From positions 1-63,954 of IMG/VR virus record IMGVR_UViG_3300004154_000014: a stretch of DNA of 63,954 nt; one strand, given 5' to 3'. A program made the position numbers and the translations under genes. The notes below the pieces were generated by a model. It was not told where the DNA came from. It worked only from the letters and a program-made list of their open reading frames with translations, and ran no database searches. This document shows positions 2-54,537 of this stretch, piece after piece. This stretch comes from a virus. Position 1 is the first letter of the stretch. The number at the start of each line of letters is the position of its first letter.

Positions 2-574
2 CCGACCGGCACCATCAGCCTGAGCCTGGCCAACAACGCCTCCAACGGCATCGAGCCGAGTTTCGCCCACAGCTACCTGCGCAACGTCATCAAGGACGGC
101 AAGAAGTCCAAGGAGCAGGTCGAGGTGATGAGCTACGAGCTGCTCGCCTACCGCACCCTGGTCAATCCGGACGCCAGCCTGGAAGACCTGCCGGCGAGCT
201 TCGTCTCCAGCGACACCATCCCGGCCAAGGCCCATGTGCTGATCCAGGCTGCCGCCCAGAAGTGGATCGACTCGTCGATCTCCAAGACGGTCAATGTGCC
301 CACGGATTACCCCTTCGAGGATTTCCAGGACCTGTACCTGTTCGCCTACGAGCACAAGCTCAAGGGCTGCACCACCTTCCGCTACAACCCAGAGGCCTTT
401 AGCGGCGTGCTGGTGAAGCAGGCGGACCTGGCCAACACCACCTACGAGTTCGATCTCGAGGACGGCACCACGGTGCGCCTACAGGGCGACGAGAAGGTCC
501 TCTACGACGGTGAGAGCCATGTCGTGGCCAATCTCTTCGACGCAATTAAAGAAGGCTATTACGGCAAGTTCTGA
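2..574 (+). CDS. nrdJ: Class II ribonucleotide reductase large chain, C-terminal part (5' truncated by window)
   Basis: Reduces ribonucleotides to deoxyribonucleotides for phage DNA synthesis; class II enzymes use adenosylcobalamin. The frame is open from the window edge, so the N-terminus is missing and 190 residues remain. Visible are the catalytic-barrel signature PTGTISL and GIEPSF near the start, and the late ISKTVNVP ... LKGCTTFRYNPE stretch typical of B12-dependent reductases. The chain ends without the usual C-terminal TSCPD/zinc-ribbon module, which is encoded by the next gene. That split resembles the nrdJa/nrdJb arrangement of Pseudomonas. Family assignment is confident; class II rather than class I rests on these motifs and on the partner gene. 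Confidence 0.85.
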   Translation, partial: PTGTISLSLANNASNGIEPSFAHSYLRNVIKDGKKSKEQVEVMSYELLAYRTLVNPDASLEDLPASFVSSDTIPAKAHVLIQAAAQKWIDSSISKTVNVPTDYPFEDFQDLYLFAYEHKLKGCTTFRYNPEAFSGVLVKQADLANTTYEFDLEDGTTVRLQGDEKVLYDGESHVVANLFDAIKEGYYGKF

Positions 575-619
575 CCCCTTCCCACGCCCTGGCCAAGCCA
601 GGGCAACAAGGACCCTTCC

Positions 620-1333
620 ATGAAAGAAATCAGCAGCAAAATCGTCGGCTTGCGCGTGGCCTCCAACGAAGCCAGAAAGGAAATCTTTCCGTCCATGGTC
701 CCCGACCACGATCCCCTCACCAGCCGCATCGACCGGCGTCCCGACGGTGCCCTGGAAGCGGTGGCCGAGAAGATCGACTACCACACCCAGGAAGGCCGCA
801 AACGGGTCTACCTGGTGGTGAGCTTCATGCCGGTCGAGGGCTGGCTGGATGGCGCTCCCGTGAGCCTGGAGCGCCCCGTGGAGTTCTTCGTGCCCGGAGG
901 CCTCTCCAGCGAGCACCAGTGGGTCACCGCGACCATGCGCAGCCTCTCCCTGGCTGCTCGTGCCGGCTTCGTTGCCAAGGCCCTCCAGGACCTTCGCAAG
1001 GTGGTCTGGGACAAGGGGCCGGTGCGTCTGGGCGTCAATGCCCATGGCAAGCCCCTGTACCACAACAGCGAGGTTGCCGCGATCGCCTGGAGCCTCCAGC
1101 AGATCCTGATTCGTCGCGGATTCCTCAGCGAGGACGGCAGCCCTCGGCAAGCCAGGGAAATCATCTTCTCGGCACTCTACCCCGAGCAGGGGACAGTAGA
1201 AGGAGCGACCCCCACGCCACCTCCGGTGGCTGCGGGTAGCGTGGTGGAAACCTGTCCCGAATGCCGGGGCGACATGGTGTTGATGGACGGTTGCGCCACC
1301 TGCATCGACTGTGGTCACAGCAAGTGCGGTTGA
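620..1333 (+). CDS. NrdJb-like partner of class II ribonucleotide reductase (TSCPD plus zinc ribbon)
   Basis: 237 residues, 45 bases downstream of the reductase gene, with an AAGGA-type ribosome site. The last 30 residues carry a four-cysteine-rich ribbon (CPEC, then GCATCIDCGHSKC). In one-piece class II reductases this forms the redox-active C-terminal tail that re-reduces the active-site cysteines. The body (residues about 60-170) fits the TSCPD domain normally fused upstream of that ribbon. I infer that it works with the preceding gene as the second half of a split enzyme, as NrdJa/NrdJb do in Pseudomonas. The domain reading is from motif memory, not a search. Confidence 0.75.
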   Translation: MKEISSKIVGLRVASNEARKEIFPSMVPDHDPLTSRIDRRPDGALEAVAEKIDYHTQEGRKRVYLVVSFMPVEGWLDGAPVSLERPVEFFVPGGLSSEHQWVTATMRSLSLAARAGFVAKALQDLRKVVWDKGPVRLGVNAHGKPLYHNSEVAAIAWSLQQILIRRGFLSEDGSPRQAREIIFSALYPEQGTVEGATPTPPPVAAGSVVETCPECRGDMVLMDGCATCIDCGHSKCG

Positions 1334-1690
1334 ACCCCCTTTGACTCCCCCCTCCCTTCACAGGCCGAGCAGTGCGCGAGGGCGCGCAGCGACCCGAGCA
1401 AGCACGGCGCCGAGGCCTGTGAAGGGAGGTAGAAGTAATACCTCCCTCTATTACCTCTTCATTCCTTTCCTCCCGGTCCCTGCCCAAATCCCCTTCCTGT
1501 CCTTTGCCGGTGCTCGCTTCGCTGCGCGCCGGCAGGACCGGGGATTTGGGCAGGGACCGGGGAACCCCTCTTTTCCCTCTGTCCCGCAAAGCGAGGGCAG
1601 GGGAAAAGTTCGCCGTCGAGAAAGCGAAGACGGGGAAGCAGGGGTTCCCCCTTTATATATGGGACGTACTGGAAGTTATAAAGGACTGCC
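1334..1690 (+). other. Gene-free array of large stem-loops
   Basis: No credible gene. Four inverted repeats follow each other: 1351-1366 with 1414-1429 (16 bp, perfect), 1423-1431 with 1439-1447 (9 bp, loop 7), 1472-1493 with 1540-1561 (22 bp, perfect, with a smaller inner hairpin), and 1559-1569 with 1640-1650 (11 bp, enclosing a longer imperfect stem). An AT-rich block (CTTTATATATGGG) follows directly at 1651-1663, before the next gene. Possible roles are terminator plus promoter, RNA-stability element, or recognition structures for the phage polymerases. The sequence alone does not decide. Confidence 0.7.
1651..1663 (+). promoter_or_regulatory. Candidate middle promoter (AT-rich TTTATATA block)
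   Basis: A short AT-rich tract in otherwise GC-rich DNA, placed 28 bases before the gene at 1691 and just after the stem-loop array. N4 RNAPII middle promoters are AT-rich around the start site, so this is a plausible site for the RNAP1/RNAP2 enzyme. This is inference from position and composition only. Confidence 0.3.
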
Positions 1691-2134
1691 ATGCTTATTC
1701 CAATTGATCATACAAAAATCGTTACTCCCGATTACCCCATCGACAGCATGCCGACCCTCTCGGCACGCCTGGGCAAAGCCGGCTGCGCACGCATTCGCCA
1801 AGCCCAAACCCCGGCAAGACCGGAGAGAAAACACGGCAAGCGGATCGTCAATCGTCACCTGGCTTCCATGCAGGCGGTTACCCCGCATGCCAGCGGCCCC
1901 ATCGACGACATCCTGGCCGGCATCGCCCGACTGGACTGGGGAAGCGACAAGCCCCTCAGCACCGGAATTCTCTATGCACTCCTGCAGTGCCTGGAGACCT
2001 TCACGACCCCTGTCGTGATGGAGATGCTCGCTACGCAGGAACGGCGAGCGCAGAAGTACATCAAGGCCCTGGAGCTGTGCCTGACCGCCCTGGACCGGCA
2101 GTGGGCGCCGCAAGCAAATGCAGGGAGTCGCTGA
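1691..2134 (+). CDS. Hypothetical protein, 147 aa
   Basis: Not recognised. The start ATG follows AAGGA by seven bases. The N-terminal 60 residues are basic (several Arg/Lys, an ERKHGKR run near residue 45). The C-terminal half is predicted helical (residues about 70-135) and contains an ETFTTPVVMEMLATQERRAQ stretch. It is the first gene after the stem-loop array and may head the transcription unit that includes the nuclease and primase genes. No function is claimed. Confidence 0.6.
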   Translation: MLIPIDHTKIVTPDYPIDSMPTLSARLGKAGCARIRQAQTPARPERKHGKRIVNRHLASMQAVTPHASGPIDDILAGIARLDWGSDKPLSTGILYALLQCLETFTTPVVMEMLATQERRAQKYIKALELCLTALDRQWAPQANAGSR

Positions 2135-2185
2135 CCCCCCACATAGAATCCTTCGCCGTCATCCCTCATCCGTAGTAAGGCAGTC

Positions 2186-2605
2186 ATGAACCAGAAACCT
2201 GTACCCACCTGTCATGCCACCCACCGCCATCTGCGTACCGGCGGCCACCCTCTCAACCCTTCGGATGCGATCGCAGCATCCCCGGTGCTGACCGACGCAG
2301 AGTTGGACGCCTACCTGTTGAGGACCGGGTCCTCCGGACCCTCCGACGACGATGCCGAGCTGGAGAAGCAGGCAGTCCCGTACAGCCACTACTTCAAGAA
2401 CGTCCAGGGGCTGGTAGTGATCGACGTGTATCGCGTCATCGAGCTTTGGCAGGTCCCTGCCGGCCCTCTCGACCATGCCTTGAAGAAGATCCTCAACCTC
2501 GGCCAGCGCGGCGGCAAAGACGCCATCCAGGACATCACCGAAGCCCGTGATTCCCTCAATCGCTGGCTGGAGATGCGCAGCGAAGACGCGGCCCTCGGCC
2601 GATAA
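2186..2605 (+). CDS. Conserved phage protein with a KKIL-x-GQRGGKD motif
   Basis: 139 residues. The C-terminal half (about 65-130) has the pattern HYFKNV, IDVYRV, LDHALKKIL, GQRGGKD, DITEARDSLNRWLEM. I recognise this pattern from small phage proteins of unknown function encoded near replication genes. The N-terminal 60 residues look disordered and acidic. It sits between an unknown gene and the PD-(D/E)XK nuclease gene. A role in DNA metabolism is a guess from position. Confidence 0.6.
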   Translation: MNQKPVPTCHATHRHLRTGGHPLNPSDAIAASPVLTDAELDAYLLRTGSSGPSDDDAELEKQAVPYSHYFKNVQGLVVIDVYRVIELWQVPAGPLDHALKKILNLGQRGGKDAIQDITEARDSLNRWLEMRSEDAALGR

Positions 2606-2608
2606 CCC

Positions 2609-2628
2609 ACCCTCCCTGCGGGGAGGGT
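2609..2628 (+). terminator. Stem-loop, 8-bp stem, TGCG loop
   Basis: Perfect stem ACCCTCCC/GGGAGGGT with a four-base loop, just after the stop at 2605. There is no downstream T-run, so it may be a processing or attenuator hairpin rather than a full terminator. A near-identical design (8-bp stem, TGCG loop) occurs at 7808-7827. Confidence 0.4.
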
Positions 2629-2649
2629 AACCTCCCCAAGGACCCTCCC

Positions 2650-3624
2650 ATGCTCTACACCAACCAGACCAAGATCCCGCTCTCCATGGCCGTGTTCCTG
2701 GCCACCGACTACTACGACTACCAGCCCGGGGCGATGAGCGCGACCAGCCTGCTCAAGCCCCTGCGCCAGCTCCTGCTGGCCGAGCGGGTGCCTCCGGCCC
2801 AGCGGGTGGTCGACATCGCCGAGCTGGCCAAGTCGCGGATGGGCACCGCCTACCACGACGCCATCGAGAAGGCCTGGAAAAGCAACTACGTCCAGGCCAT
2901 GAAGCGGCTCGGCTACAAGGACGCGATCATCGATCGCATCCGCATTAATCCCGAACCAGGGACCCTACGCCCGGGCGACATCCCGGTCTACATGGAAGAG
3001 CGGATGTTTCGGGAGATCGACGGCCAGGTCATCAGCGGCAAGCCCGACTTCATCGGCAACGGCCGTCTCGAGGACTACAAGTCCACCTCCGTCTACTCCT
3101 GGCTTCATGGCCGCAACGACTGGAAGTACCGGATGCAGGGCAGCATCTACCGCTGGCTTGATCCGAAGAAGATCACCGAGGAGGTGATGGCCATCCAGTT
3201 CCTGTTCACCGACTGGCAGAAATCCTCCGCCAAGGCCGATCCGCAGTACCCGCAGAACCTCACCCAGCACAAGGAGTACCCGCTGTTCTCCCTGGAGGAA
3301 ACCGAGGAATTCATCCGCACCCAGGTTTACCGCTATCAGCACTTCAAGAACGTCCCGGAAGCCAGCCTGCCCCTGTGTACGAACGAAGACCTGTGGCGCA
3401 AGCCCACGGTCTGGAAGTTCTACGGCAAGCCCGATGCCAAGCGGGCCACCAAGGTCTTCGAGGACAAGGCCAAGGCCTACAGCCATTGCGCCAAAGAGGG
3501 CAAGGGCGTCGGCGTCGTCAAGGAAGTTCCCGGGGAAGTGGCCGCCTGCCTGTACTGCTCGGGCTTCGATCTCTGCACCCAGAAAGACGCCCTGATCAGG
3601 TCGGGCGAACTCAAACTTGCCTAG
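2650..3624 (+). CDS. PD-(D/E)XK superfamily nuclease
   Basis: 324 residues, ATG after AAGGACCC. The nuclease core is visible: D133 in GKPDFIG and D142-x-K144 in LEDYKSTSVYSW, the metal-binding and catalytic residues of the Cas4/RecB-like nuclease fold. Three C-terminal cysteines (CLYCSGFDLC, about 298-307) recall the Fe-S ligands of Cas4-like exonucleases, although the first Cas4 cysteine is not obvious. It lies ten bases before the primase gene. N4 relatives have a nuclease of this type in their replication block (gp43 region), so it likely processes phage DNA during replication or recombination. Confidence 0.75.
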   Translation: MLYTNQTKIPLSMAVFLATDYYDYQPGAMSATSLLKPLRQLLLAERVPPAQRVVDIAELAKSRMGTAYHDAIEKAWKSNYVQAMKRLGYKDAIIDRIRINPEPGTLRPGDIPVYMEERMFREIDGQVISGKPDFIGNGRLEDYKSTSVYSWLHGRNDWKYRMQGSIYRWLDPKKITEEVMAIQFLFTDWQKSSAKADPQYPQNLTQHKEYPLFSLEETEEFIRTQVYRYQHFKNVPEASLPLCTNEDLWRKPTVWKFYGKPDAKRATKVFEDKAKAYSHCAKEGKGVGVVKEVPGEVAACLYCSGFDLCTQKDALIRSGELKLA

Positions 3625-3633
3625 GAGGCTATC

Positions 3634-5784
3634 GTGATTCCTGTCCAATCGATGCAACACCATCCGCTCAGCGAGCAGCTGGTGCAGGTCCTGGTCGACC
3701 GTACCCAGAACCAGAACCCGTTGTTCTTCCGGGTTCTGGTCGGCTACTACTTCTCGGTGGTGGCCAGCCACATGCGCTGCCAGATCAACACCCCCGACCG
3801 CGGCCTGATCCCGGTCAACATGTTCGCCATCAACCTGATGCCCTCCGGCGCCGGCAAGGGCCACTCGACTGGGATCATGGAGGACGAGGTCGTCCACCTG
3901 TTCCGCCAGACCTTCATGGAGGTCACCTTCCCGACCCTGGCCAACGACAACATACCGACCTTGGCGGTCAAGCGCGCCACCCGCAAGTCGACCGACCCGG
4001 ACGACGAACTCAAGCTGGTCACCAAGGAGTTCAACCAAACCGGCGAGATGGTCTTCGGCTTCGACTCCGGCACCGCACCGGCGGTCAAGCAACTGCGTCA
4101 CAAGTGCCTGATGGCCAACGCCGGCTGCGTCAACCTGCAGATGGACGAGATCGGCTCCAACCTGATGGCCAACACCGAGGTGCTCAATGCCTTCCTCGAG
4201 CTGTTCGACAAGGGAATGATCAAGTCCAAGTTGACCAAGAACACCTCGGAGAACACCCGGGTGGAGGAGATCAAGGGCGCCACCCCGACCAACATGATGC
4301 TCTACGGCACCCCGGTGAAACTGCTCAACGGCAGCAAGACCGAGGAGGAGCTGATGTCCTTCCTGGACACCGGCTACGCCCGCCGCTGCTTCTTCGGTTA
4401 CTCCCTGGTTTCCCATCGCCGGCAGGACCTGACTCCCCAGGAGGTCTTCGACCTGATGACCAACCCGTCCACCAACCTGTTCCTCGAGCAGTTGGCGGAC
4501 AAGCTGGAACGGCTGGCCAACATCATCAACGTGCGCAAGAAACTGGTGATGGCCAAGGACACTTCGCTGCTGTTGATCGAGTACAAGCTCGACTGCGAGA
4601 AGCGTGCCGAGGCCCTGGCCGACCACGAGGAATCCAGGAAGGCCGAGATCAGCCACCGCTACTTCAAGGCGCTCAAGTTGGCCGGGGCCTATGCCTTCGT
4701 CGACGAGTCGCCAGAGCTGACCCAGGATCACCTGCTGGCGGCGATCAAGCTCGCCGAGGAATCCGGAGAAGCCTTCGACATGCTGCTCACCAGGGACCGT
4801 CCCTACGTCAAGCTGGCCAAGTACATCGCCAGCGTGAACCGGGAAGTGACCCAGGCCGACCTGGTCGAGGATCTGCCCTTCTACCGGGGCAGCGCCAGCG
4901 CCCGCTCCGACCTCATGCAGCTGGCGATCAGCTGGGGCTACCGCAACAACATCATCGTCAAGAAGTCCTTCCAGGACGGCATCGAGTTCCTGCGCGGCGA
5001 GAGCCTCAAGGAGACCGATCTGAAAGAGATCATCCTGGCGTTCAGCGACGACATGACCACCGGCTACCGCAACGAGCTAGCCCCCTTCGACAAGCTCCAC
5101 CAGATGACCCAGGTCAACGGCCTGCACTGGGTCACCCACCATCTCAAGGACGGCTATCGCAACGAGGAGAGTGCGGCGCCTGGCTTCAATCTGATCGTCA
5201 TCGACGTGGACGGCACCTGCAACCTGAGCACGGCCAAGTTGGTGCTCAAGGATTACAAGGCGCTGTACTACACCACCAAGCGCCATACCGAGAAGGAGAA
5301 CCGCTTCCGGATCATCTTGCCCACCAGCCATGTGCTCAAGCTCGATGCCAAGGATTACAAAGAGTTCATGAACAACATCTACCAGTGGCTGCCGTTCCCG
5401 GTCGACGACCAGACCGATCAACGCGCTCGCAAGTGGCTGACCCATCCGGGCCACTACGAGTACACCGAGGGCCAGACGATCGACGTGCTGCCGCTCATCC
5501 CGAAAACCGACAAGAACGAACAGCGCAAGGCTCAGCTGGATTCCCAGCAGGCCATGGACGCCCTCGAGCGCTGGGTGATCAACAACACCGGCGACGGCAA
5601 CCGCAACAACATGCTGCTGCGCTTCGCAATGATCCTCGTCGATGCCGGCTTCGACTTCGAGTCCACTCGCCTGAAGGTGATGGCCCTGAACGACAAGCTG
5701 CCCGACAAGCTCGACGAGGCCGAGATCCTCGGCTCGATCATGATCACCGTCGGCAAGGCCCTGGCCAAACGTGCCGCGCCTTAA
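3634..5784 (+). CDS. Primase-helicase-like replication protein (N4 gp44-like)
   Basis: 716 residues from a GTG start preceded by AGGAGG. The N-terminal half has a P-loop (PSGAGKG, K75) as in DUF3987-type helicase domains. The C-terminal third has an archaeo-eukaryotic primase-like block: the acidic pair in IVIDVDGT (D524, D526) followed by HTEKENRFRIILP, matching the catalytic DxD and basic motif of that fold. Together these suggest priming of phage replication. The neighbours (nuclease, RecA-like ATPase, SSB) form the same block as in N4. The primase assignment rests on motifs and synteny. Confidence 0.7.
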   Translation: MIPVQSMQHHPLSEQLVQVLVDRTQNQNPLFFRVLVGYYFSVVASHMRCQINTPDRGLIPVNMFAINLMPSGAGKGHSTGIMEDEVVHLFRQTFMEVTFPTLANDNIPTLAVKRATRKSTDPDDELKLVTKEFNQTGEMVFGFDSGTAPAVKQLRHKCLMANAGCVNLQMDEIGSNLMANTEVLNAFLELFDKGMIKSKLTKNTSENTRVEEIKGATPTNMMLYGTPVKLLNGSKTEEELMSFLDTGYARRCFFGYSLVSHRRQDLTPQEVFDLMTNPSTNLFLEQLADKLERLANIINVRKKLVMAKDTSLLLIEYKLDCEKRAEALADHEESRKAEISHRYFKALKLAGAYAFVDESPELTQDHLLAAIKLAEESGEAFDMLLTRDRPYVKLAKYIASVNREVTQADLVEDLPFYRGSASARSDLMQLAISWGYRNNIIVKKSFQDGIEFLRGESLKETDLKEIILAFSDDMTTGYRNELAPFDKLHQMTQVNGLHWVTHHLKDGYRNEESAAPGFNLIVIDVDGTCNLSTAKLVLKDYKALYYTTKRHTEKENRFRIILPTSHVLKLDAKDYKEFMNNIYQWLPFPVDDQTDQRARKWLTHPGHYEYTEGQTIDVLPLIPKTDKNEQRKAQLDSQQAMDALERWVINNTGDGNRNNMLLRFAMILVDAGFDFESTRLKVMALNDKLPDKLDEAEILGSIMITVGKALAKRAAP

Positions 5785-23051: not shown

Positions 23052-25347
23052 TGAAGTGTTCCCCCAGCGTGTCGTTGATACTGGGCAGTTGCAACTGCAA
23101 GTCGTAATACTCCGACATTGCGGCAATACCCAGGGAGCCTATGTTACCTGCGTGGACCGTCCGCAAATAAAAATTCGCCGGTGTTTCATTAAGCAAGGTC
23201 ATCGGCTGCAAGTTGACCATCTCCAGCGGATCAATAGTGATTCCGGTATCGAGCAACTTGCGGGTTTCGTCGAGCAGATCCTGTTGTTCCAGGGCGTAGT
23301 CCTGGAAGTCCATCATGTCGTCCTGCAGCCCGGTAAGGTCTTCTTGGTAGGCCTGCGCCGAAGCCCGGGTCAATCCGTTGGAGGCCTGCAAGAGATTCTG
23401 CGCCCAGGTCGCGCTGTTGGGCATGTCGCTACCGAAGTAGACCGCCGCCGCCACCACCGCGGCGATGGCCCCGACCACCAGCGCTACGTCGCCTCCCACC
23501 GCTTCGGTGAACAGTTTGAGGCCGTACTGGATGACGATTGACATCACCAACCGGGTAAGGATCGCCGCCGCCAGGGCGGAGGCCGTCATCGAAGCCAGGG
23601 CAGTCCAGATCGCCGAGGCCCCACCCATCGAGACCACCGTGACCACGATCGCCACCACGATCACCACGGCCTTGAACCAGCCGCTCTGGTACCACTTCAC
23701 CTTGATGGTGATCCGGGTATTGAAGACGTAGTGCATCGAGCGGGCATACAGCTCCTCCCGGTCGATCAGCTGGACGGTGTCGATCAGCGCCCGGTCGATC
23801 GGAATCAGCAGGCAGTCGTCCCCGGTCTTGCCGGTGTAGGTGTGCTTGCCGTAGATGTGGTAGCGCAGTCGCGGATCGTAGACCACGATCTCGTCGTAGT
23901 AGAGCGCGTTGATCTGCCGGCGGTACCAGTGGTGATCGGTGTTGACGGTGGTCGGAACCACCACGGTAGAGCCATCCGACTTGCGCTTGATGTAGCTGCT
24001 GGTGACGTACTTGCTGCCGGTGCCGCTGGAGTGCGAGCCCACTGCTCCGATGCTGCCGGCGATCCGTCGCTTGCCGATTCCCCGGTAGCTCAGGGTGAAC
24101 TTGAAGGCCTGGTCCTGGAAGACGATCGCCTGACCTGCCCGCGAGGTGTAGGCGTCGTAGGCACCGGTTGCTCCGACCAGGTCCACCGGCTGGGCCGAGT
24201 TGAAATAGAGCAGGTCGAAGTGGTCGAACAGGTAGCTTCGCTCCACCTCGCTGGTAGCGTTGGCCGGTACCGCAAAGACCATGATCGCCTGTTCGATGTC
24301 GTTGATGTCGGGGTTCTCATGGATCGCATCGACGGTCGCCTGGAAGTCCATGTCGAGCTTGCGCAGCATCTCCTTGGAGGTCTTGTAGAGGTCGGTGTTG
24401 CGCACCGCCGTGCGGCCCATGTTCTCGTCGTCGAGCCGGAAGTAGACGAAGGGGAAGTAGCGCCCCAGCTCGGCGTAACTGGTGTTGCGGATGTTGTCGA
24501 CCGCCGGATAGGTGCCGGCCCCGTCGAGGTAGGTCCAGAACCCGGTATGCCAGACCGCCACCTCGGGCGTCATGCCCACCGCCGGGGTGATCACTTCCTT
24601 CCAGCGGTAGCGCACCTGGTAGTAGTCAGCGTCCTCATCGAAACCAGAGATAGGAATCTGCAGGGTGGCAGACCGCGCGGCTGCCCCCGGCGCGGTCTGC
24701 CAGACGTAGCGCACTTCCACGTAGTCCTCGGTGCCGTCCTCGTCGACCTGCCAGGGCGTGAAGCTGCGGTACTCCCCCAGGGCACCGCCGACCTGGGCCG
24801 GGCGCTGGGGCGTATAGCCGGCCCGGGGCGAGGTGCCCCACTGGTCCAGTTCCCCCGGATCGGCCTCGTCGATGGTTGCCTGCGAGTACACCGCGATCAT
24901 GTCGTCGAGGTAGACCGGACTGCCCACACTGGCAGAGAGCACCGTCAGCTCGTTGCTGTCGGCCACGTAGCCGTAGCTCTCGACCAGGGCCTGCCAGGCG
25001 ACGTGCAGGGAATTGATCCCGGCGAACTGGAAATAGTCGGTGGTGACGGTGTGGCCGATCAGCAGTTCGATGGTTTGCTCGACGATGTCCTGGCCTTCCA
25101 GGCTGGTGGTCAGCGTGCTGTACGGCAAGCCCAGGGGATAGTGATCCTCGGCATAGTCGTAGAACCGCTCGGCCTTGAACGCCATCGAGGCCACCAGATC
25201 CTCAAGCAGGTAGGCGGAAATATCGCCGTCCTGCATGATCGCCTTGATCACCCCGGTCTTGCTCGACTGGGGCAGCTGGTCGTCCTCGATGATCCGCATG
25301 ACCTCGGTGTGGACGACGGTCTTCTTCTTGCTGCCGAACAGGCCCAT
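23038..25347 (-). CDS. Large late virion protein with membrane segments, 769 aa
   Basis: Start at 25347 chosen because GGGGGAGA sits just upstream; an earlier ATG five codons before lacks a site. Residues about 1-560 are soluble, with many aromatic and acidic residues. Residues about 565-655 hold two to three strongly hydrophobic segments rich in Val/Ala/Ile, and a helical tail follows. Late position between capsid genes and vRNAP plus membrane segments suggests an ejected protein that helps DNA or vRNAP cross the envelope. N4-like phages encode a protein of this size here. Function is inferred. Confidence 0.65.
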   Translation of the reverse strand: MGLFGSKKKTVVHTEVMRIIEDDQLPQSSKTGVIKAIMQDGDISAYLLEDLVASMAFKAERFYDYAEDHYPLGLPYSTLTTSLEGQDIVEQTIELLIGHTVTTDYFQFAGINSLHVAWQALVESYGYVADSNELTVLSASVGSPVYLDDMIAVYSQATIDEADPGELDQWGTSPRAGYTPQRPAQVGGALGEYRSFTPWQVDEDGTEDYVEVRYVWQTAPGAAARSATLQIPISGFDEDADYYQVRYRWKEVITPAVGMTPEVAVWHTGFWTYLDGAGTYPAVDNIRNTSYAELGRYFPFVYFRLDDENMGRTAVRNTDLYKTSKEMLRKLDMDFQATVDAIHENPDINDIEQAIMVFAVPANATSEVERSYLFDHFDLLYFNSAQPVDLVGATGAYDAYTSRAGQAIVFQDQAFKFTLSYRGIGKRRIAGSIGAVGSHSSGTGSKYVTSSYIKRKSDGSTVVVPTTVNTDHHWYRRQINALYYDEIVVYDPRLRYHIYGKHTYTGKTGDDCLLIPIDRALIDTVQLIDREELYARSMHYVFNTRITIKVKWYQSGWFKAVVIVVAIVVTVVSMGGASAIWTALASMTASALAAAILTRLVMSIVIQYGLKLFTEAVGGDVALVVGAIAAVVAAAVYFGSDMPNSATWAQNLLQASNGLTRASAQAYQEDLTGLQDDMMDFQDYALEQQDLLDETRKLLDTGITIDPLEMVNLQPMTLLNETPANFYLRTVHAGNIGSLGIAAMSEYYDLQLQLPSINDTLGEHFNGIV

Positions 25348-37347: not shown

Positions 37348-37358
37348 CGCTGCGCTCA
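37348..37358 (+). promoter_or_regulatory. Early upstream element, copy B (CGCTGCGCTCA)
   Basis: An exact copy 50 bases before the start codon at 37409. A perfect 11-bp hairpin (37359-37387) follows immediately, so element and hairpin may act together. Confidence 0.5.
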
Positions 37359-37387
37359 GGGACTGGAGTCATGTGAACTCCAGTCCC
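37359..37387 (+). promoter_or_regulatory. Perfect 11-bp hairpin in early leader
   Basis: GGGACTGGAGT and its reverse complement around a 7-base loop, abutting early element B and ending 21 bases before the start codon at 37409. There is no T-run, so it is more likely a leader-RNA structure or promoter part than a terminator. Confidence 0.6.
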
Positions 37388-37408
37388 TTACAGTAGAGGA
37401 GAAGAGCG

Positions 37409-50974: not shown

Positions 50975-53056
50975 ATGCGTCATCTGTCCTTCAAGGAATC
51001 GGCTACCTACCCGGTCGCCCTGCTGCTCAAACCCAACGCCTTCCTCCAGTCCGAAATCCTCCGCCACTACGGCGAACCCCTGGCAGCCGCCGGCATACCC
51101 CTCGACGATCTGATCGCCATGACCCTGGACAACCCGTCCGAGGGCAAGCTGACCGTGAAGTTCGCCAAGGAGTATGCCGACAAGCTGCTCCAGGCCCTCG
51201 ATACTGTGGACACCCGGCTGCTCTATTGCACCGACGCTACCTACTTCAAGGTGCTCACCAAGCAGACCAAGGCCGAGCCCCACCTGGGCTATGCCCTGCC
51301 CTGTGCCCTGCCTGGCTTCGAACACATGCAGGTGGTACTGGGCATCGGCTACCCGAGCCTGTTCTACAACCCGGCGCTGTCAGCTAAGCTCGACCTCTCG
51401 CTCAAGGCCTTGGTTGGGCAGTACGCTGGCAACTACCGACCACCGGGAGAGGGCATCATCCACCACGCCGAGTACCCCGCGAGCGTGGTGGAGATCAAGG
51501 CGGCACTGGACAAGCTGCACCAGTACCCCTACCTGGCAGCCGACATCGAGGCATTCAGCCTCAACCATTGGCTGGCTGGGATCGGCTCGATATGTTTTAC
51601 GTGGAACACTCATGAAGGCCTGGCCTTTCTGATCGACTACGTACCCCTCGCCGAGCCGGTTTGGGACAACCCCAAGAAGCAAACCACCGGGCAATTCGGC
51701 CAGCAAGTCTTCAACCCCGAAGTGCGTGCCCTGTTGCGTGAATTCTTCGAGACCTACCGGGGCACCTTGCGCTGGCACCGGGCAAGCTTCGACCTCAAGG
51801 TACTGATCTACCAGCTGTGGATGTCCTCGATCGACGATACCGCCGGGCTGCTACGGGGCCTGGAGGTGATGACCCGACACTTCGACGACACCCTGGTGAT
51901 CACCTACCTGGCCACCAACAGTTGTGCTGGCAACGAACTGGGCCTGAAAGCCAATGCCCACGAGTTCGCCGGCAACTGGGCCAACGAGGAGATCAAGGAC
52001 ATCCGGCGGATCAAGCCAGGTGAGCTACTGCAGTACAACCTGGTCGACGGCTTGTCCACCAACTACGTCTTCGACAAGCACTACCCGACCCTGGTCGCCG
52101 ACCAGCAGGAGGAGCTTTACCAGGGCTTCATGAAAGACAGCTTGCGGGTGCTGATCCAGACCATGCTGACCGGGATGCCGGTCAAGCCGGCGCGGGTCCA
52201 GGAGGTCAAGGAGATCCTCGAGACCAAGCGTGACGAGCTGTTCGACAGCATCGTCGCCAACCCCCTGGTCAAGGCGCTCAATCTGGTGTTCCAGAAGAAA
52301 GCCCAGGAGGCCGCCAACGCCAAGCTGAAGGTCAAGCAACACCCACTGGAACATTTCAGCGGCGTGATCTTCAACCCGGGCAGTCCGCAACAGGTTCAGT
52401 ACCTGCTCTACGAGCAGATGGGCCTGCCGGTGCTCGACAAGACCGACAGCGGGCAGCCGTCCACCGGCGGCGATACCCTGGCCAAGCTGATCCACCACAC
52501 CGAGGTGCCAGCCTACAAGGCGGTGATCCAGGCCCTGATCGACCTCTCCGGGGTGGTCAAGATCCTCTCTTCATTCATCCCGGCGCTGGAAGGTGCGGTG
52601 CCGATCCCGGGCACCGAGTACGCCCTGCTGTTCGGTAACTTCAACCTCGGCGGTGCGGTCTCCGGCCGGCTTTCCTCCTCGGACCCCAACCTGCAGAACC
52701 TGCCGGCCAAAGGCCTCTGGGGCAAGCTGATCAAGTCCTGCTTCATCGCTGCCCCGGGCTGGCTGTTCGCCGGATCAGACTTTGCCAGCCTTGAGGACCG
52801 CATCAACGCCCTGTTGACCAAGGACAGAAACAAACTGCGTGTGTACACGGATGGGTTCGACGGCCATTGCCTGCGAGCCTTTGCTTATTTTCCTAGTGAG
52901 TTGCCTGGGATAACCCAGGCCCAAGAAACTGATCGCTGTTTCCGGATCACGATAAAGGGCCAAACTTTTCTATGTAAAAGTGGGGACTTTATTATAACCT
53001 CAGCGGGAGAGCACATTCCAGTAGAGCAGTTTTATGATTCCTATCAAAGAGTATGA
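50975..53056 (+). CDS. DNA polymerase, family A, N-terminal part (gene split)
   Basis: 693 residues carrying the 3'-5' exonuclease (ADIEAF, D190 and E192; HRASFDLK) and the first half of the polymerase domain: SGRLSSSDPNLQN, then motif A GSDFASLEDRI with D602, then DGHCLRAFAYF. It stops before the O-helix, in a stretch (CFRITIKG to YDSYQRV) that I cannot assign with certainty to the polymerase. The rest of the polymerase lies beyond an HNH endonuclease gene. DNA becomes less GC-rich from about 52830, as if a segment around the split was replaced. Start ATG 50975 follows CAGGAG. Its N4 counterpart is gp39. Confidence 0.88.
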   Translation: MRHLSFKESATYPVALLLKPNAFLQSEILRHYGEPLAAAGIPLDDLIAMTLDNPSEGKLTVKFAKEYADKLLQALDTVDTRLLYCTDATYFKVLTKQTKAEPHLGYALPCALPGFEHMQVVLGIGYPSLFYNPALSAKLDLSLKALVGQYAGNYRPPGEGIIHHAEYPASVVEIKAALDKLHQYPYLAADIEAFSLNHWLAGIGSICFTWNTHEGLAFLIDYVPLAEPVWDNPKKQTTGQFGQQVFNPEVRALLREFFETYRGTLRWHRASFDLKVLIYQLWMSSIDDTAGLLRGLEVMTRHFDDTLVITYLATNSCAGNELGLKANAHEFAGNWANEEIKDIRRIKPGELLQYNLVDGLSTNYVFDKHYPTLVADQQEELYQGFMKDSLRVLIQTMLTGMPVKPARVQEVKEILETKRDELFDSIVANPLVKALNLVFQKKAQEAANAKLKVKQHPLEHFSGVIFNPGSPQQVQYLLYEQMGLPVLDKTDSGQPSTGGDTLAKLIHHTEVPAYKAVIQALIDLSGVVKILSSFIPALEGAVPIPGTEYALLFGNFNLGGAVSGRLSSSDPNLQNLPAKGLWGKLIKSCFIAAPGWLFAGSDFASLEDRINALLTKDRNKLRVYTDGFDGHCLRAFAYFPSELPGITQAQETDRCFRITIKGQTFLCKSGDFIITSAGEHIPVEQFYDSYQRV

Positions 53057-53747
53057 AGTGCAATACACCATTGCTGAAAATGGTGATGTCACCCGTAGGG
53101 AAACAGGGCGGATACTCCGCCCTAGTCTCAATAAGCAAACAGGTTATCTGTATGTTGGGTTGTGGAAGCACAACATTGGTAAGACGTTTGCTGTACATCG
53201 GCTGGTTGCTGAGCATTACATTTCCAATCCAGCAAACAAACCTTTCGTCAATCACAAAGACAGTATAAGAACCAATCCGCACAAGGATAATCTGGAATGG
53301 TGTACTCAAGGGGAAAATATACTCCACGGGTATGCCCAAGGATTCATGAGCCAGGAGAATCGCCGGAATTTCAAAGACTTCGAGTTGGATCTGCTTCTTC
53401 AATCCGTCCTTGCTGGAGAGACTATGACAACTCTCGCATCGGCTGCTGACGTGGGCTTAGGGCGACTGACGATCAACTTGCGTAAATATGCGGATACTGC
53501 TGGATTACTTGAAAAATTTCTGGAGGAGTTGTACCGACAAAAGTGTGAAAGGAACGCGCAGGCCAACGTGAATAAACGCAGACCTATTCTGCAGTGGACA
53601 ATCCAAGGCACTCTAGTATCGGAGCATGAAAGTGCAACAGCTGCTGCTAGAACTCTGGGGCGTTCTTCTGCAGGTTCTATATTCAATGCCCTTAATCCCG
53701 GTAAGACTCAGCAGAAGGCTTTTGGTTACTTATGGACATTCAAGTAA
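53034..53747 (+). CDS. HNH homing endonuclease inserted in the DNA polymerase gene
   Basis: 237 residues overlapping the end of the polymerase N-part by 23 bases. Residues 1-55 resemble a NUMOD4-type domain. The HNH core is HRLVAEHYI, VNHKDSIRTNPHKDNLEW (N73-H74, N86). Residues about 180-237 look like a NUMOD1 DNA-binding repeat ending FGYLWTFK. Such enzymes cut homologous alleles lacking the insertion and so spread by homing; I-HmuI of phage SPO1 is a known case in a DNA polymerase gene. AT-rich codon use contrasts sharply with neighbours and marks it as acquired. Confidence 0.88.
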   Translation: MIPIKEYEVQYTIAENGDVTRRETGRILRPSLNKQTGYLYVGLWKHNIGKTFAVHRLVAEHYISNPANKPFVNHKDSIRTNPHKDNLEWCTQGENILHGYAQGFMSQENRRNFKDFELDLLLQSVLAGETMTTLASAADVGLGRLTINLRKYADTAGLLEKFLEELYRQKCERNAQANVNKRRPILQWTIQGTLVSEHESATAAARTLGRSSAGSIFNALNPGKTQQKAFGYLWTFK

Positions 53748-53860
53748 ACGGTGACTTCTCAATAGAAGAAGTCACCACAGATATATTCAACGTCTTTCAA
53801 ATTAACCGGATTAAAAAGGAGTATGGGGCTCTTCGAGATGAATCGAAGAGCCCCACTTGA
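53732..53860 (+). CDS. DNA polymerase internal fragment encoding O-helix start (ends at TGA)
   Basis: A 42-codon frame from ATG 53732 to TGA 53858-53860. Its last 21 residues, FQINRIKKEYGALRDESKSP plus Thr, match the family A segment just before the conserved TFLLTYGG, including the O-helix Arg and Lys (R-x3-K). It is in the same frame as the polymerase N-part but not as the C-part. It is therefore genuine polymerase sequence cut off by a stop at the exact point where the other frame continues. Whether translation starts at this ATG is unknown. Confidence 0.6.
   Translation: MDIQVNGDFSIEEVTTDIFNVFQINRIKKEYGALRDESKSPT
53825..53854 (+). promoter_or_regulatory. Perfect 12-bp hairpin before the polymerase frame break
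   Basis: GGGGCTCTTCGA and its reverse complement flank a 6-base loop. The hairpin ends one base before the ACT codon that precedes the in-frame TGA. It also encodes conserved polymerase residues, so its perfection is notable. It could be a recoding signal, part of a self-splicing RNA, or coincidence. Confidence 0.65.
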
Positions 53861-54537
53861 CTTTCCTCCTTACCTACGGAGGTTCCTGGCGCGGCTTGAT
53901 GGCCAACCTCGGCTGGCCCAAAGAGAAAGCCCTGCGTATTGAGGCCAACTACCACGCGCTGTACGTCGAGTCCGACGAGTGGGTGAAAGCCAAGATCGAC
54001 GAAGCCGCCCGGCTGGGTTACGCCACCTCGGCCTTTGGACTGCGCATCCGGGCACCCTTGTTGACCCAGACCCTGCGGGGGAGGGCCAAGTGTCCCCATG
54101 AGGCGGAAGCCGAAGCCAGGACGCTTGGAAATGCCATCAGTGGCCAGTCCTATGGCCTGCTGACCAACCGGGCCGCCAACGCCTTCATGGCCAAGGTCTG
54201 GGCCTCGCCCTACCGGTTGGACATCCTCCCCGTGGCGTTCATCCACGATGCGATCTACCTGCTGATCCGCAGCCGTCCGGAGATCGTCGAGTGGGTTAAC
54301 CGCGAGCTGATCACCGAGATGCGATGGCAGGAGCTGCCGGAGATCACCCATGACCAGGTCAAGCTGGGCGCCGAACTGGACTTGTTCTATCCCAGCTGGG
54401 CCTACCCGGTCACCCTGCCCAACGGTGCCGATGCCGCCACCATTCTCGAACGCTGCCAGGCCCACCGGGACGAGCTGCACGAGAAGGGTGTTTTGCCTGC
54501 TTTACCCACGAAGAAAACCCCCATGTCTACCCCCTGA
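53857..54537 (+). CDS. DNA polymerase, family A, C-terminal part
   Basis: 226 residues covering the second half of the polymerase domain: TFLLTYGGSW (end of O-helix), FGLRIRAPLL, and motif C VAFIHDAIYLL with the catalytic Asp at codon 54247. The TTG that opens the frame is probably not a real start. The first conserved residues (TFLL) begin at 53860, right after the frame break, so this part must be joined to the upstream fragment by recoding or splicing, or be inactive. GC-rich codon use returns here, as in the N-part. Confidence 0.8.
   Translation: MTFLLTYGGSWRGLMANLGWPKEKALRIEANYHALYVESDEWVKAKIDEAARLGYATSAFGLRIRAPLLTQTLRGRAKCPHEAEAEARTLGNAISGQSYGLLTNRAANAFMAKVWASPYRLDILPVAFIHDAIYLLIRSRPEIVEWVNRELITEMRWQELPEITHDQVKLGAELDLFYPSWAYPVTLPNGADAATILERCQAHRDELHEKGVLPALPTKKTPMSTP

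What the first reader, a model, noticed from the sequence alone, without database searches (positions are those of the whole stretch)
50975..54537. DNA polymerase gene split by an HNH endonuclease inside the O-helix region
The exonuclease and motif A part ends at 53056, the HNH gene occupies 53034-53747, and the polymerase resumes with INRIKKEY, LRDESKSP (frame of the N-part) and then TFLLTYGG (another frame). The HNH gene fills the insertion almost completely, leaving little room for a group I ribozyme core. A free-standing homing gene that split the polymerase in two is therefore as likely as an intron.
Basis: partly seen in the sequence, partly recalled or inferred. Interest (0 to 1): 0.8.

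Follow-up and report, generated by a model that had tools for sequence, protein, structure and literature searches.

The report
Split phage polymerase with ribosome hop
A selfish DNA-cutting gene has split this virus's DNA polymerase gene in two, and beside it lies a tiny insert that ribosomes must apparently jump over to build the enzyme's active site, an arrangement so far best known from one gene of phage T4 and seen here, by sequence alone, in a dozen related viruses.

Summary
In this Schitoviridae-like genome the family A DNA polymerase is split into an N-part (50975-53056), an HNH gene (53034-53747) and a C-part (53732-54537). I find no group I intron. The N-part ends in an added tail of about 45 residues; the C-part starts with one of about 23 codons. 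A stop follows Thr codon 42, and the frame resumes in exact register one hop later (ACT|TGACT|TTC). Eleven further divergent loci carry inserts of 1, 5, 9, 40, 45, 47 or 48 nt at motif B, with synonymous (9 of 12 overall) or near-cognate (3 of 12) take-off and landing codons. Hairpins and Shine-Dalgarno-like boxes at these sites exceed 94 in-frame controls. In 11 of 12 an HNH gene with its catalytic motif ends 85-118 nt before take-off; the one type-2 locus whose HNH lost its catalytic His has no insert. Best reading: mobile HNH cassettes that shield their own target with an insert and rely on programmed ribosomal bypassing, like T4 39-mobA-60. Sequence evidence only; no translation was measured.

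The parts
50975..53056 (+). DNA polymerase N-part (exonuclease, motif A)
   Evidence: Pfam DNA_pol_A 97.9 bits, PHROG 17 348.8 bits; tblastn to Schitoviridae
52913..53053 (+). N-tail: added C-terminal mini-domain of the N-part, distantly intein (Hint)-like
   Evidence: absent from the uninterrupted polymerases read; shared with other split polymerases; pN below pS; model and matches
53034..53747 (+). HNH endonuclease gene with NUMOD4 motif; overlaps the N-part by 23 nt and the C-part by 16 nt
   Evidence: catalytic motif NHKD..NLEW
53732..54537 (+). DNA polymerase C-part: ATG 53732 to the stop at 54537, interrupted by the 5-nt insert
   Evidence: 44-72% identity among the C-parts of the 12 insert loci
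53732..53800 (+). C-tail: added first 23 codons of the C-part
53816..53821 (+). Shine-Dalgarno-like AAGGAG, 39 nt before the take-off codon
53824..53855 (+). 13-bp perfect hairpin ending on the first base of the take-off codon
53855..53857 (+). proposed take-off codon ACT (Thr, codon 42 of the C-part)
53858..53862 (+). 5-nt insert TGACT: in-frame stop TGA (53858-53860), proposed landing codon ACT (53860-53862); decoding resumes at TTC 53863
53750..53776 (+). second perfect hairpin (10 bp) inside the C-tail coding region, role unknown

Best explanation
A mobile HNH cassette has split the polymerase gene and carries a ribosome-bypass site. (a) Split [shown by sequence]: N-part with tail, HNH gene and C-part with tail overlap and are probably translationally coupled; two polypeptides replace one polymerase. 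(b) Protection [inferred]: the HNH enzyme cleaves the highly conserved motif B DNA of unoccupied polymerase genes. The cassette sits upstream of motif B, so its own motif B would stay cleavable; the small insert there makes it resistant. (c) Bypass [signals shown, event inferred]: the ribosome reads the C-part to Thr codon 42 (ACT) with a stop codon in the A site; helped by AAGGAG and the hairpin behind it, peptidyl-tRNA-Thr leaves ACT, lands on the ACT 5 nt on, and decoding resumes at TTC, giving R-DES-K-SPT-F-LLT-Y-G in exact register. (d) Reassembly [inferred]: the tails, distant relatives of intein (Hint) parts without conserved splicing residues, dock the two polypeptides. The layout matches T4 39-mobA-60.
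For: Same site, order and 5-nt offset in L019 with TAG in place of TGA. 12 distinct insert loci in all, inserts of 1, 5, 9, 40, 45, 47, 48 nt at motif B; take-off and landing codons encode the same amino acid in 9 of 12. Against 94 in-frame controls, 11 insert loci have longer stems (p 3.6e-6) and stronger anti-SD pairing (p 1.5e-7); the longest perfect stem ends -1 to +3 nt from take-off in 9 of 11 and in L410; SD-like box at -39 in 7 of 11 though take-off moves by up to 12 nt in motif B. Three both-sided stem changes among 4 sequences. No ATG/GTG/TTG for ORF2 in 10 of 11 nor in L410. ORF2 dN/dS 0.11-0.34 in 7 of 9 pairs, 2 saturated. No second polymerase copy in the 11 records searched. HNH with catalytic motif ends 85-118 nt before take-off in 11 of 12. 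L242, with HNH motif TYIDG..NLYW, has no insert. The nearest HNH of L247 sits in a group I intron at motif B.
Against: No transcript, protein or cleavage data. All insert loci are metagenome-derived contigs; no cultured phage with this type was found. L270 has a 1-nt insert but no HNH in view and an N-run; in L270 and L245 the longest perfect stem does not end at take-off. Landing codon GCT in 3 of 12 is only near-cognate. 88 of 500 shuffles reach the count of both-sided changes. Synonymous conservation is not above the polymerase background (p 0.21; p 0.0014 against the HNH gene). The window alone has a possible TTG start for ORF2. The gp60 N-terminus does not resemble the C-tails (rank 797 among shuffles).
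Confidence: 0.78

Rival explanations
1. The 5-nt sites are read by a conventional -1 frameshift on C CCC AC, not by a hop; the product has two extra residues (SPHLTF).
For: The frame change equals -1; window, L019 and L183 have C CCC before AC.
Against: L201 reads T CCC and L247 CTC ACC, so the slippery run is not kept. Two residues would be added between the catalytic Lys and Phe, whose spacing R-xxx-K-xxx-F holds in 90 of 95 loci, the other 5 being frame-broken. It cannot explain gaps of 9, 40, 45, 47 and 48 nt.
Confidence: 0.1
2. The polymerase is broken: the inserts are decay or assembly error, or the phage relies on another polymerase.
For: Metagenome contigs; no expression data; L413 shows a clearly damaged relative.
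Against: 12 distinct loci 44-72% identical with placed signals; ORF2 under purifying selection; no second polymerase copy found.
Confidence: 0.07
3. ORF2 starts on its own (in the window at TTG 53857, overlapping the TGA stop), so three polypeptides assemble.
For: TTG in frame 6 nt before the resume point; AAGGAG would lie near it if the hairpin is folded.
Against: 10 of 11 other loci (9 with no start besides L270 and the rest; L410) lack any ATG, GTG or TTG between the last stop and the resume point; only the window has one. The O-helix would be cut between catalytic Lys and Phe.
Confidence: 0.03
4. The tails are active split-intein halves that ligate the polymerase by trans-splicing.
For: Tail profile hits the Aes123 PolB1 split intein 9hth (E 2.5e-5); four of the six structural matches are inteins; the window, L019 and L201 tails hold CKSGD.
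Against: CKSGD occurs in 3 of the 14 tails aligned; the window's C-tail runs into QINRI without Asn before Cys, Ser or Thr; the tails are too short for a full Hint domain.
Confidence: 0.04
5. The interruption is a group I intron carrying an HNH gene.
For: HNH genes in group I introns occur in this family: nACB1, JA-1.
Against: No Rfam group I match in the window nor at gathering level in L019, L183, L201, L245, L247; coding tails under selection; the 1- to 48-nt inserts are too small.
Confidence: 0.03

Closest known systems
T4 genes 39-mobA-60.1-60 and the 50-nt gene 60 bypass (PMC3014915, PMC5009743, PMC11194080: passages read; T4 record read)
   Same: Phage replication gene split by an HNH gene; bypass early in the downstream gene (T4 codon 46, here mostly 42-47) inside a conserved active-site stretch; stop codon after take-off, matched codons, upstream stem-loop, SD-like box; gp39 C-terminus resembles the N-tails.
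   Different: Polymerase instead of topoisomerase; gaps from 1 to 48 nt; SD-like box upstream of the take-off codon instead of before landing; HNH motif intact while T4 mobA is annotated defective; not shown experimentally.
Aeh1 nrdA-a / mobE / nrdA-b and phage 25 gp43A/43B (PMC2988022 passages read)
   Same: Homing gene in a phage replication gene; pieces are active together. Essential tails on Aeh1 NrdA are recalled, not read.
   Different: No bypass reported in the passages read; I could not find the Aeh1 nrdA sequence to compare tails.
HNH genes in group I introns of phage polymerases (nACB1)
   Same: HNH 52-55% identical to that of L247, located at motif B.
   Different: Intron sequence detectable by Rfam and no tails; the window has the reverse.
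Aes123 PolB1 split intein (9hth; PMC11923092 passages read)
   Same: Split element in a phage DNA polymerase; sequence similarity to the N-tails.
   Different: It splices; the tails here lack conserved splicing residues.
Streptomyces phage Hau3 terminase and yeast mitochondrial byp elements (PMC5009743 passages read)
   Same: Short bypass candidates or cases; Hau3 with an upstream SD-like sequence.
   Different: Unrelated genes; no HNH cassette mentioned in the passages read.

Membership tests
T4 mobA/gene 60-type HNH-bypass cassette | host gene split by an HNH gene, downstream piece in its own gene | tested here: met
[quoted passage not shown]
   window: ACT|TG ACT, TGA, 13-bp stem
T4 mobA/gene 60-type HNH-bypass cassette | protein product joined across the gap | not testable with these tools
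   no expression data
T4 mobA/gene 60-type HNH-bypass cassette | endonuclease cuts gapless but not gapped alleles | not testable with these tools
   indirect only: L242, nACB1
T4 mobA/gene 60-type HNH-bypass cassette | nascent-peptide signal | not tested
   C-tails show no similarity to the gp60 N-terminus
T4 mobA/gene 60-type HNH-bypass cassette | upstream tail homologous to the gp39 C-terminus | tested here: inconclusive
   12.8 bits, above 2000 shuffles, hhalign 3e-5; type-1 profile alone ties the best shuffle; Z 3.2
Group I intron | match to the group I covariance model | tested here: not met
   nACB1 found by the same method
Intein / split intein | Cys or Ser at the intein start and Asn before Cys/Ser/Thr at its end | tested here: not met
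Intein / split intein | Hint fold | tested here: inconclusive
   partial matches, Z 2.9-3.7; 9hth E 2.5e-5
HNH homing endonuclease | NUMOD4 and HNH motif with catalytic His and Asn | tested here: met
   NUMOD4 above its cut-off, HNH_3 below its cut-off; PHROG 59 123.7 bits; motif present
Schitoviridae family A DNA polymerase | Pol A domain and nearest relatives in Schitoviridae | tested here: met
   Pol A match of the C-part piece alone is below its cut-off (26.8 of 34.3 bits)

The most novel reading that the evidence does not exclude
T4 gene 60 is not a lone curiosity. A widespread class of HNH cassettes splits phage replication genes, supplies intein-derived docking tails so that the halves reassemble, and shields its own target with inserts of 1-48 nt that ribosomes skip; the T4 topoisomerase cassette and these Schitoviridae polymerase cassettes share an origin.
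Probability: 0.5. Interest if true: 0.95.

Novelty: new variant of a known kind. Interest (0 to 1): 0.86.

Why it matters
Programmed bypassing on bacterial ribosomes has one well-studied natural example. A natural series of 1-, 5-, 9- and 40-48-nt gaps with their signals, in a replicative polymerase, would make its rules (codon match, stem position, SD distance, gap length) directly testable. It would show how a selfish endonuclease can live beside essential active-site codons, and it warns that phage polymerases annotated as frameshifted, or joined across an 'intron', may be neither.

Tried and rejected
Group I intron in the window: no Rfam match. Active split intein: rejected for lack of conserved splicing residues. 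Tail as native polymerase sequence: rejected. Tail elsewhere: tblastn gave Schitoviridae type-1 splits and weak unrelated hits; a weak profile hit in L054 (E 0.009) was judged chance because that ORF is not beside an HNH gene. The shared FYD at tail ends partly reflects overlap with the HNH start codon. My first idea that every type-2 split carries an insert was corrected by L242, which I had first noted as lacking an HNH; one search showed one. Five of 17 C-parts flagged (L010, L023, L002, L267, L006) were set aside by eye as alignment artefacts. C-tails against the gp60 N-terminus: no support. Aeh1 nrdA was not found in the three stretches fetched. DNA search of plasmids: no match. Cultured phages of this type: none recognised, but only the listed rows of capped searches were seen. 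Terminator reading of the hairpin: the scan lists it on both strands, with a T-run (CCTTTTT) on the minus side and CTTGACTTTC on the plus side; a role as an antisense terminator is not excluded. Structural Z values under 8 may reflect only a common arrangement.

In print: searches listed no paper that I recognised as reporting bypassing in a Schitoviridae polymerase; most subscription papers are not held. The 2011 work on mobA plus the 50-nt gap as a mobile cassette is recalled, not read; PMC5009743 cites its gist. Passages only were read in PMC2988022, PMC3653736, PMC3670811, PMC5009743, PMC11194080, PMC3014915 and PMC11923092; other papers were seen as listings.
Full report
What is there. 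The window is an IMG/VR virus record of 63,954 bases. Its family A DNA polymerase matches Schitoviridae phages at about 50% for the N-part and up to 58% for the C-part. The N-part ends at 53056, the HNH gene spans 53034-53747 and the C-part starts at ATG 53732. Polymerases without an insert read from motif A to motif B in one frame.

Not an intron, as far as Rfam can tell. At gathering threshold nothing is found in the window; a permissive search of 52600-54100 lists three snRNA or snoRNA families at E 1 to 5. The same method finds a group I intron around the HNH of Acinetobacter phage nACB1 (41 and 30.5 bits, under the gathering score of 50; E 1e-7 and 1.4e-4) and one in JA-1. nACB1's N-part breaks off after SKAPTFA, inside motif B.

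Tails. The N-part ends in about 45 residues absent from uninterrupted relatives. So do the split polymerases of Pylas, Pollock, PD205, SP5M and AlfredRasser, which are interrupted elsewhere, at KVY|GYDG. I call that type 1 and the window's site, just after ..PDI, type 2. Profiles of the two tail groups match (hhalign E 1.1e-5, probability 82%); more tails of both types were aligned; pN is below pS in all 24 tail pairs computed, so the tails look translated. Part of the FYD motif is forced by the overlapping HNH start. The tail model has mean pLDDT 87.8. Of 510 chains compared, the 6 with Z>=2 are four inteins and two entries of T4 gp39 (residues 472-518); Z is at most 3.7. The tail profile's best PDB hit by sequence is the Aes123 PolB1 split intein (E 2.5e-5). 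gp39 is the piece upstream of mobA in T4; its last 62 residues score 12.8 bits, above all 2000 shuffles, with the full tail profile, 10.5 against 8.2 with type-2 tails, but only tie the best shuffle with type-1 tails. The gp60 N-terminus does not match the C-tails. These links are suggestive, not proof.

The second break. Native motif B is R-xxx-K-xxx-F-xxx-Y-G. In the window, R-DES-K-SPT is followed by TGA, and FLLTYGG continues 5 nt later in another frame. L019, found by its HNH (59% identical), has the same site, order and offset with TAG. In the 1.15-kb DNA alignment of the two, the longest identical runs (23 and 16 nt) are the AAGGAG box with the left hairpin arm, and the right arm with the start of the take-off codon.

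Survey. I took 95 polymerase C-part loci: the best 80 of 390 relatives in viral contigs and all 15 in genome contigs; a few are duplicates. R-xxx-K-xxx-F is in frame in 90 and frame-broken in 5 (L183, L189, which is L019, L201, L247, L270); L245 has a 9-nt in-frame insert with a stop just after it. HNH-led scans added L277-L280 and L410 with its near-identical twin L411. Before L410, 115 distinct C-parts had been seen; 12 lacked an uninterrupted motif B: 11 insert loci and nACB1 (after five false alarms were removed by eye). The 12 distinct insert loci: window 5 nt (ACT to ACT, TGA), L183 5 (ACC to ACT, TGA), L019 5 (ACC to GCT, TAG), L201 5 (ACT to GCT, TAG), L247 5 (ACC to GCT, TAG), L245 9 (CTC to CTT, TAA), L280 40 (ACT to ACA), L278 45 (ACG to ACC, TGA), L410 47 (ACT to ACT, TGA), L277 48 (ACC to ACT, TAG), L279 and L270 1 nt (TTT to TTC). 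The site is AP-T|F in window, L019, L201 and L183; FAL-T|Y in L247, L277, L278, L280 and L410; FL-L|T in L245; PT-F|A in L279 and L270. Pairing of tRNA-Thr with GCT would need two G-U pairs (recalled decoding rules). The four long gaps hold strong hairpins of their own. The C-parts are 44-72% identical, so these are not copies of one error.

Signals. The longest perfect stem ends -1 to +3 nt from the take-off codon in 9 of 11, not in L245 and L270; AAGGA(G) starts at -39 in 7 of 11 although take-off moves by up to 12 nt within motif B. L410, added later, has a 6-bp stem flush with take-off and AGGAG at -38. In the window group 3 of 13 stem pairs change on both sides among 4 sequences; the covariation score is reached by 5 of 500 shuffles, the count of such pairs by 88 of 500. 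The synonymous-codon test was significant only against the HNH gene.

Not independent starts, not dead genes. ORF2 has no ATG, GTG or TTG between its last stop and the resume point in 10 of 11 loci nor in L410; the window has a TTG. ORF2 dN/dS is 0.11-0.34 in 7 of 9 pairs; two pairs were saturated. Each of 11 records searched, 10 insert loci and L242, holds one polymerase in pieces and no second copy; the records may be incomplete, and L270 and L410 were not searched.

Why the insert. In 11 of 12 insert loci an HNH gene with NH.(D/N)..NLEW ends 85-118 nt before take-off. L242, with type-2 tails, has an HNH whose motif reads TYIDG..NLYW, and neither insert nor hairpin; it is one case. Nine type-1 splits whose motif B I read have no insert; there the cassette itself may interrupt the target. 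The HNH of L247 is nearest to that of nACB1 (52-55%), which sits in an intron inside motif B. So motif B is the likely target and the insert the likely protection. L270 (N-run, no HNH in view) does not fit neatly.

Comparison. In T4, genes 39, mobA, 60.1 and 60 are arranged alike; gene 60 takes off at codon 46 (GGA before TAG), with 5' stem-loop, matched codons and an SD-like box (passages in PMC3014915, PMC5009743, PMC11194080). Here take-off is codon 42 in window, L019 and L201, 45 in L183 (GTG start), 38 in L245 and 47 in L247, L277, L280 and L410; L278, L279 and L270 have several possible starts. PMC5009743 already says that the gene 60 insert may have given protection against the homing endonuclease, and names Hau3 and mitochondrial cases. 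For N4-like phages, PMC3670811 reports HNH genes splitting DNAP in JA1 and suggests an intron. The searches named under Tried and rejected listed no report of bypassing in these polymerases.

Shown versus inferred. Shown by sequence: split, tails, inserts, signals, selection, HNH association. Inferred: hopping and its efficiency, protection from cleavage, docking by tails, common origin with the T4 cassette.

Noticed in passing
L010 (AlfredRasser) 559-3833 and L001 (Pylas) 2501-5781: Cultured N4-like phages have type-1 split polymerases annotated as one CDS joined across an 'intron'; shared coding tails suggest two separate polypeptides instead.
   Followed up: partly
L007 (Acinetobacter phage nACB1) 2340-3142: HNH gene in a probable group I intron inside motif B of the polymerase, with an HNH related to that of L247.
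   Followed up: partly
L183 2188-2472 and 3084-3413: Two HNH genes in one polymerase: besides the type-2 cassette, a second one interrupts the gene near motif A (..NVEDYISAL resumes after it).
   Followed up: no
L240 and L263 (Acinetobacter sp. A47): Uninterrupted polymerase with extra residues ASTTDTKERVFI at the type-2 site, like a healed scar of an N-tail start.
   Followed up: no
L413 about 800-1875: HNH ORF fused in frame to the polymerase C-part beyond motif B; motif B is missing, so this copy looks deleted or chimeric.
   Followed up: no
L279 and L280, upstream of the HNH gene: A further unrelated gene (..GWNGKxMFIFLVxGS..) lies between the tailed N-part and the HNH gene, so the pieces can drift apart.
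   Followed up: no
L017 (Vibrio phage JA-1) 4591-4835: Group I intron match (52.2 bits) just before an HNH gene, away from the polymerase.
   Followed up: no
window 24666-24702 and 37358-37388: Two other long perfect inverted repeats (13 and 12 bp), possibly terminators.
   Followed up: no
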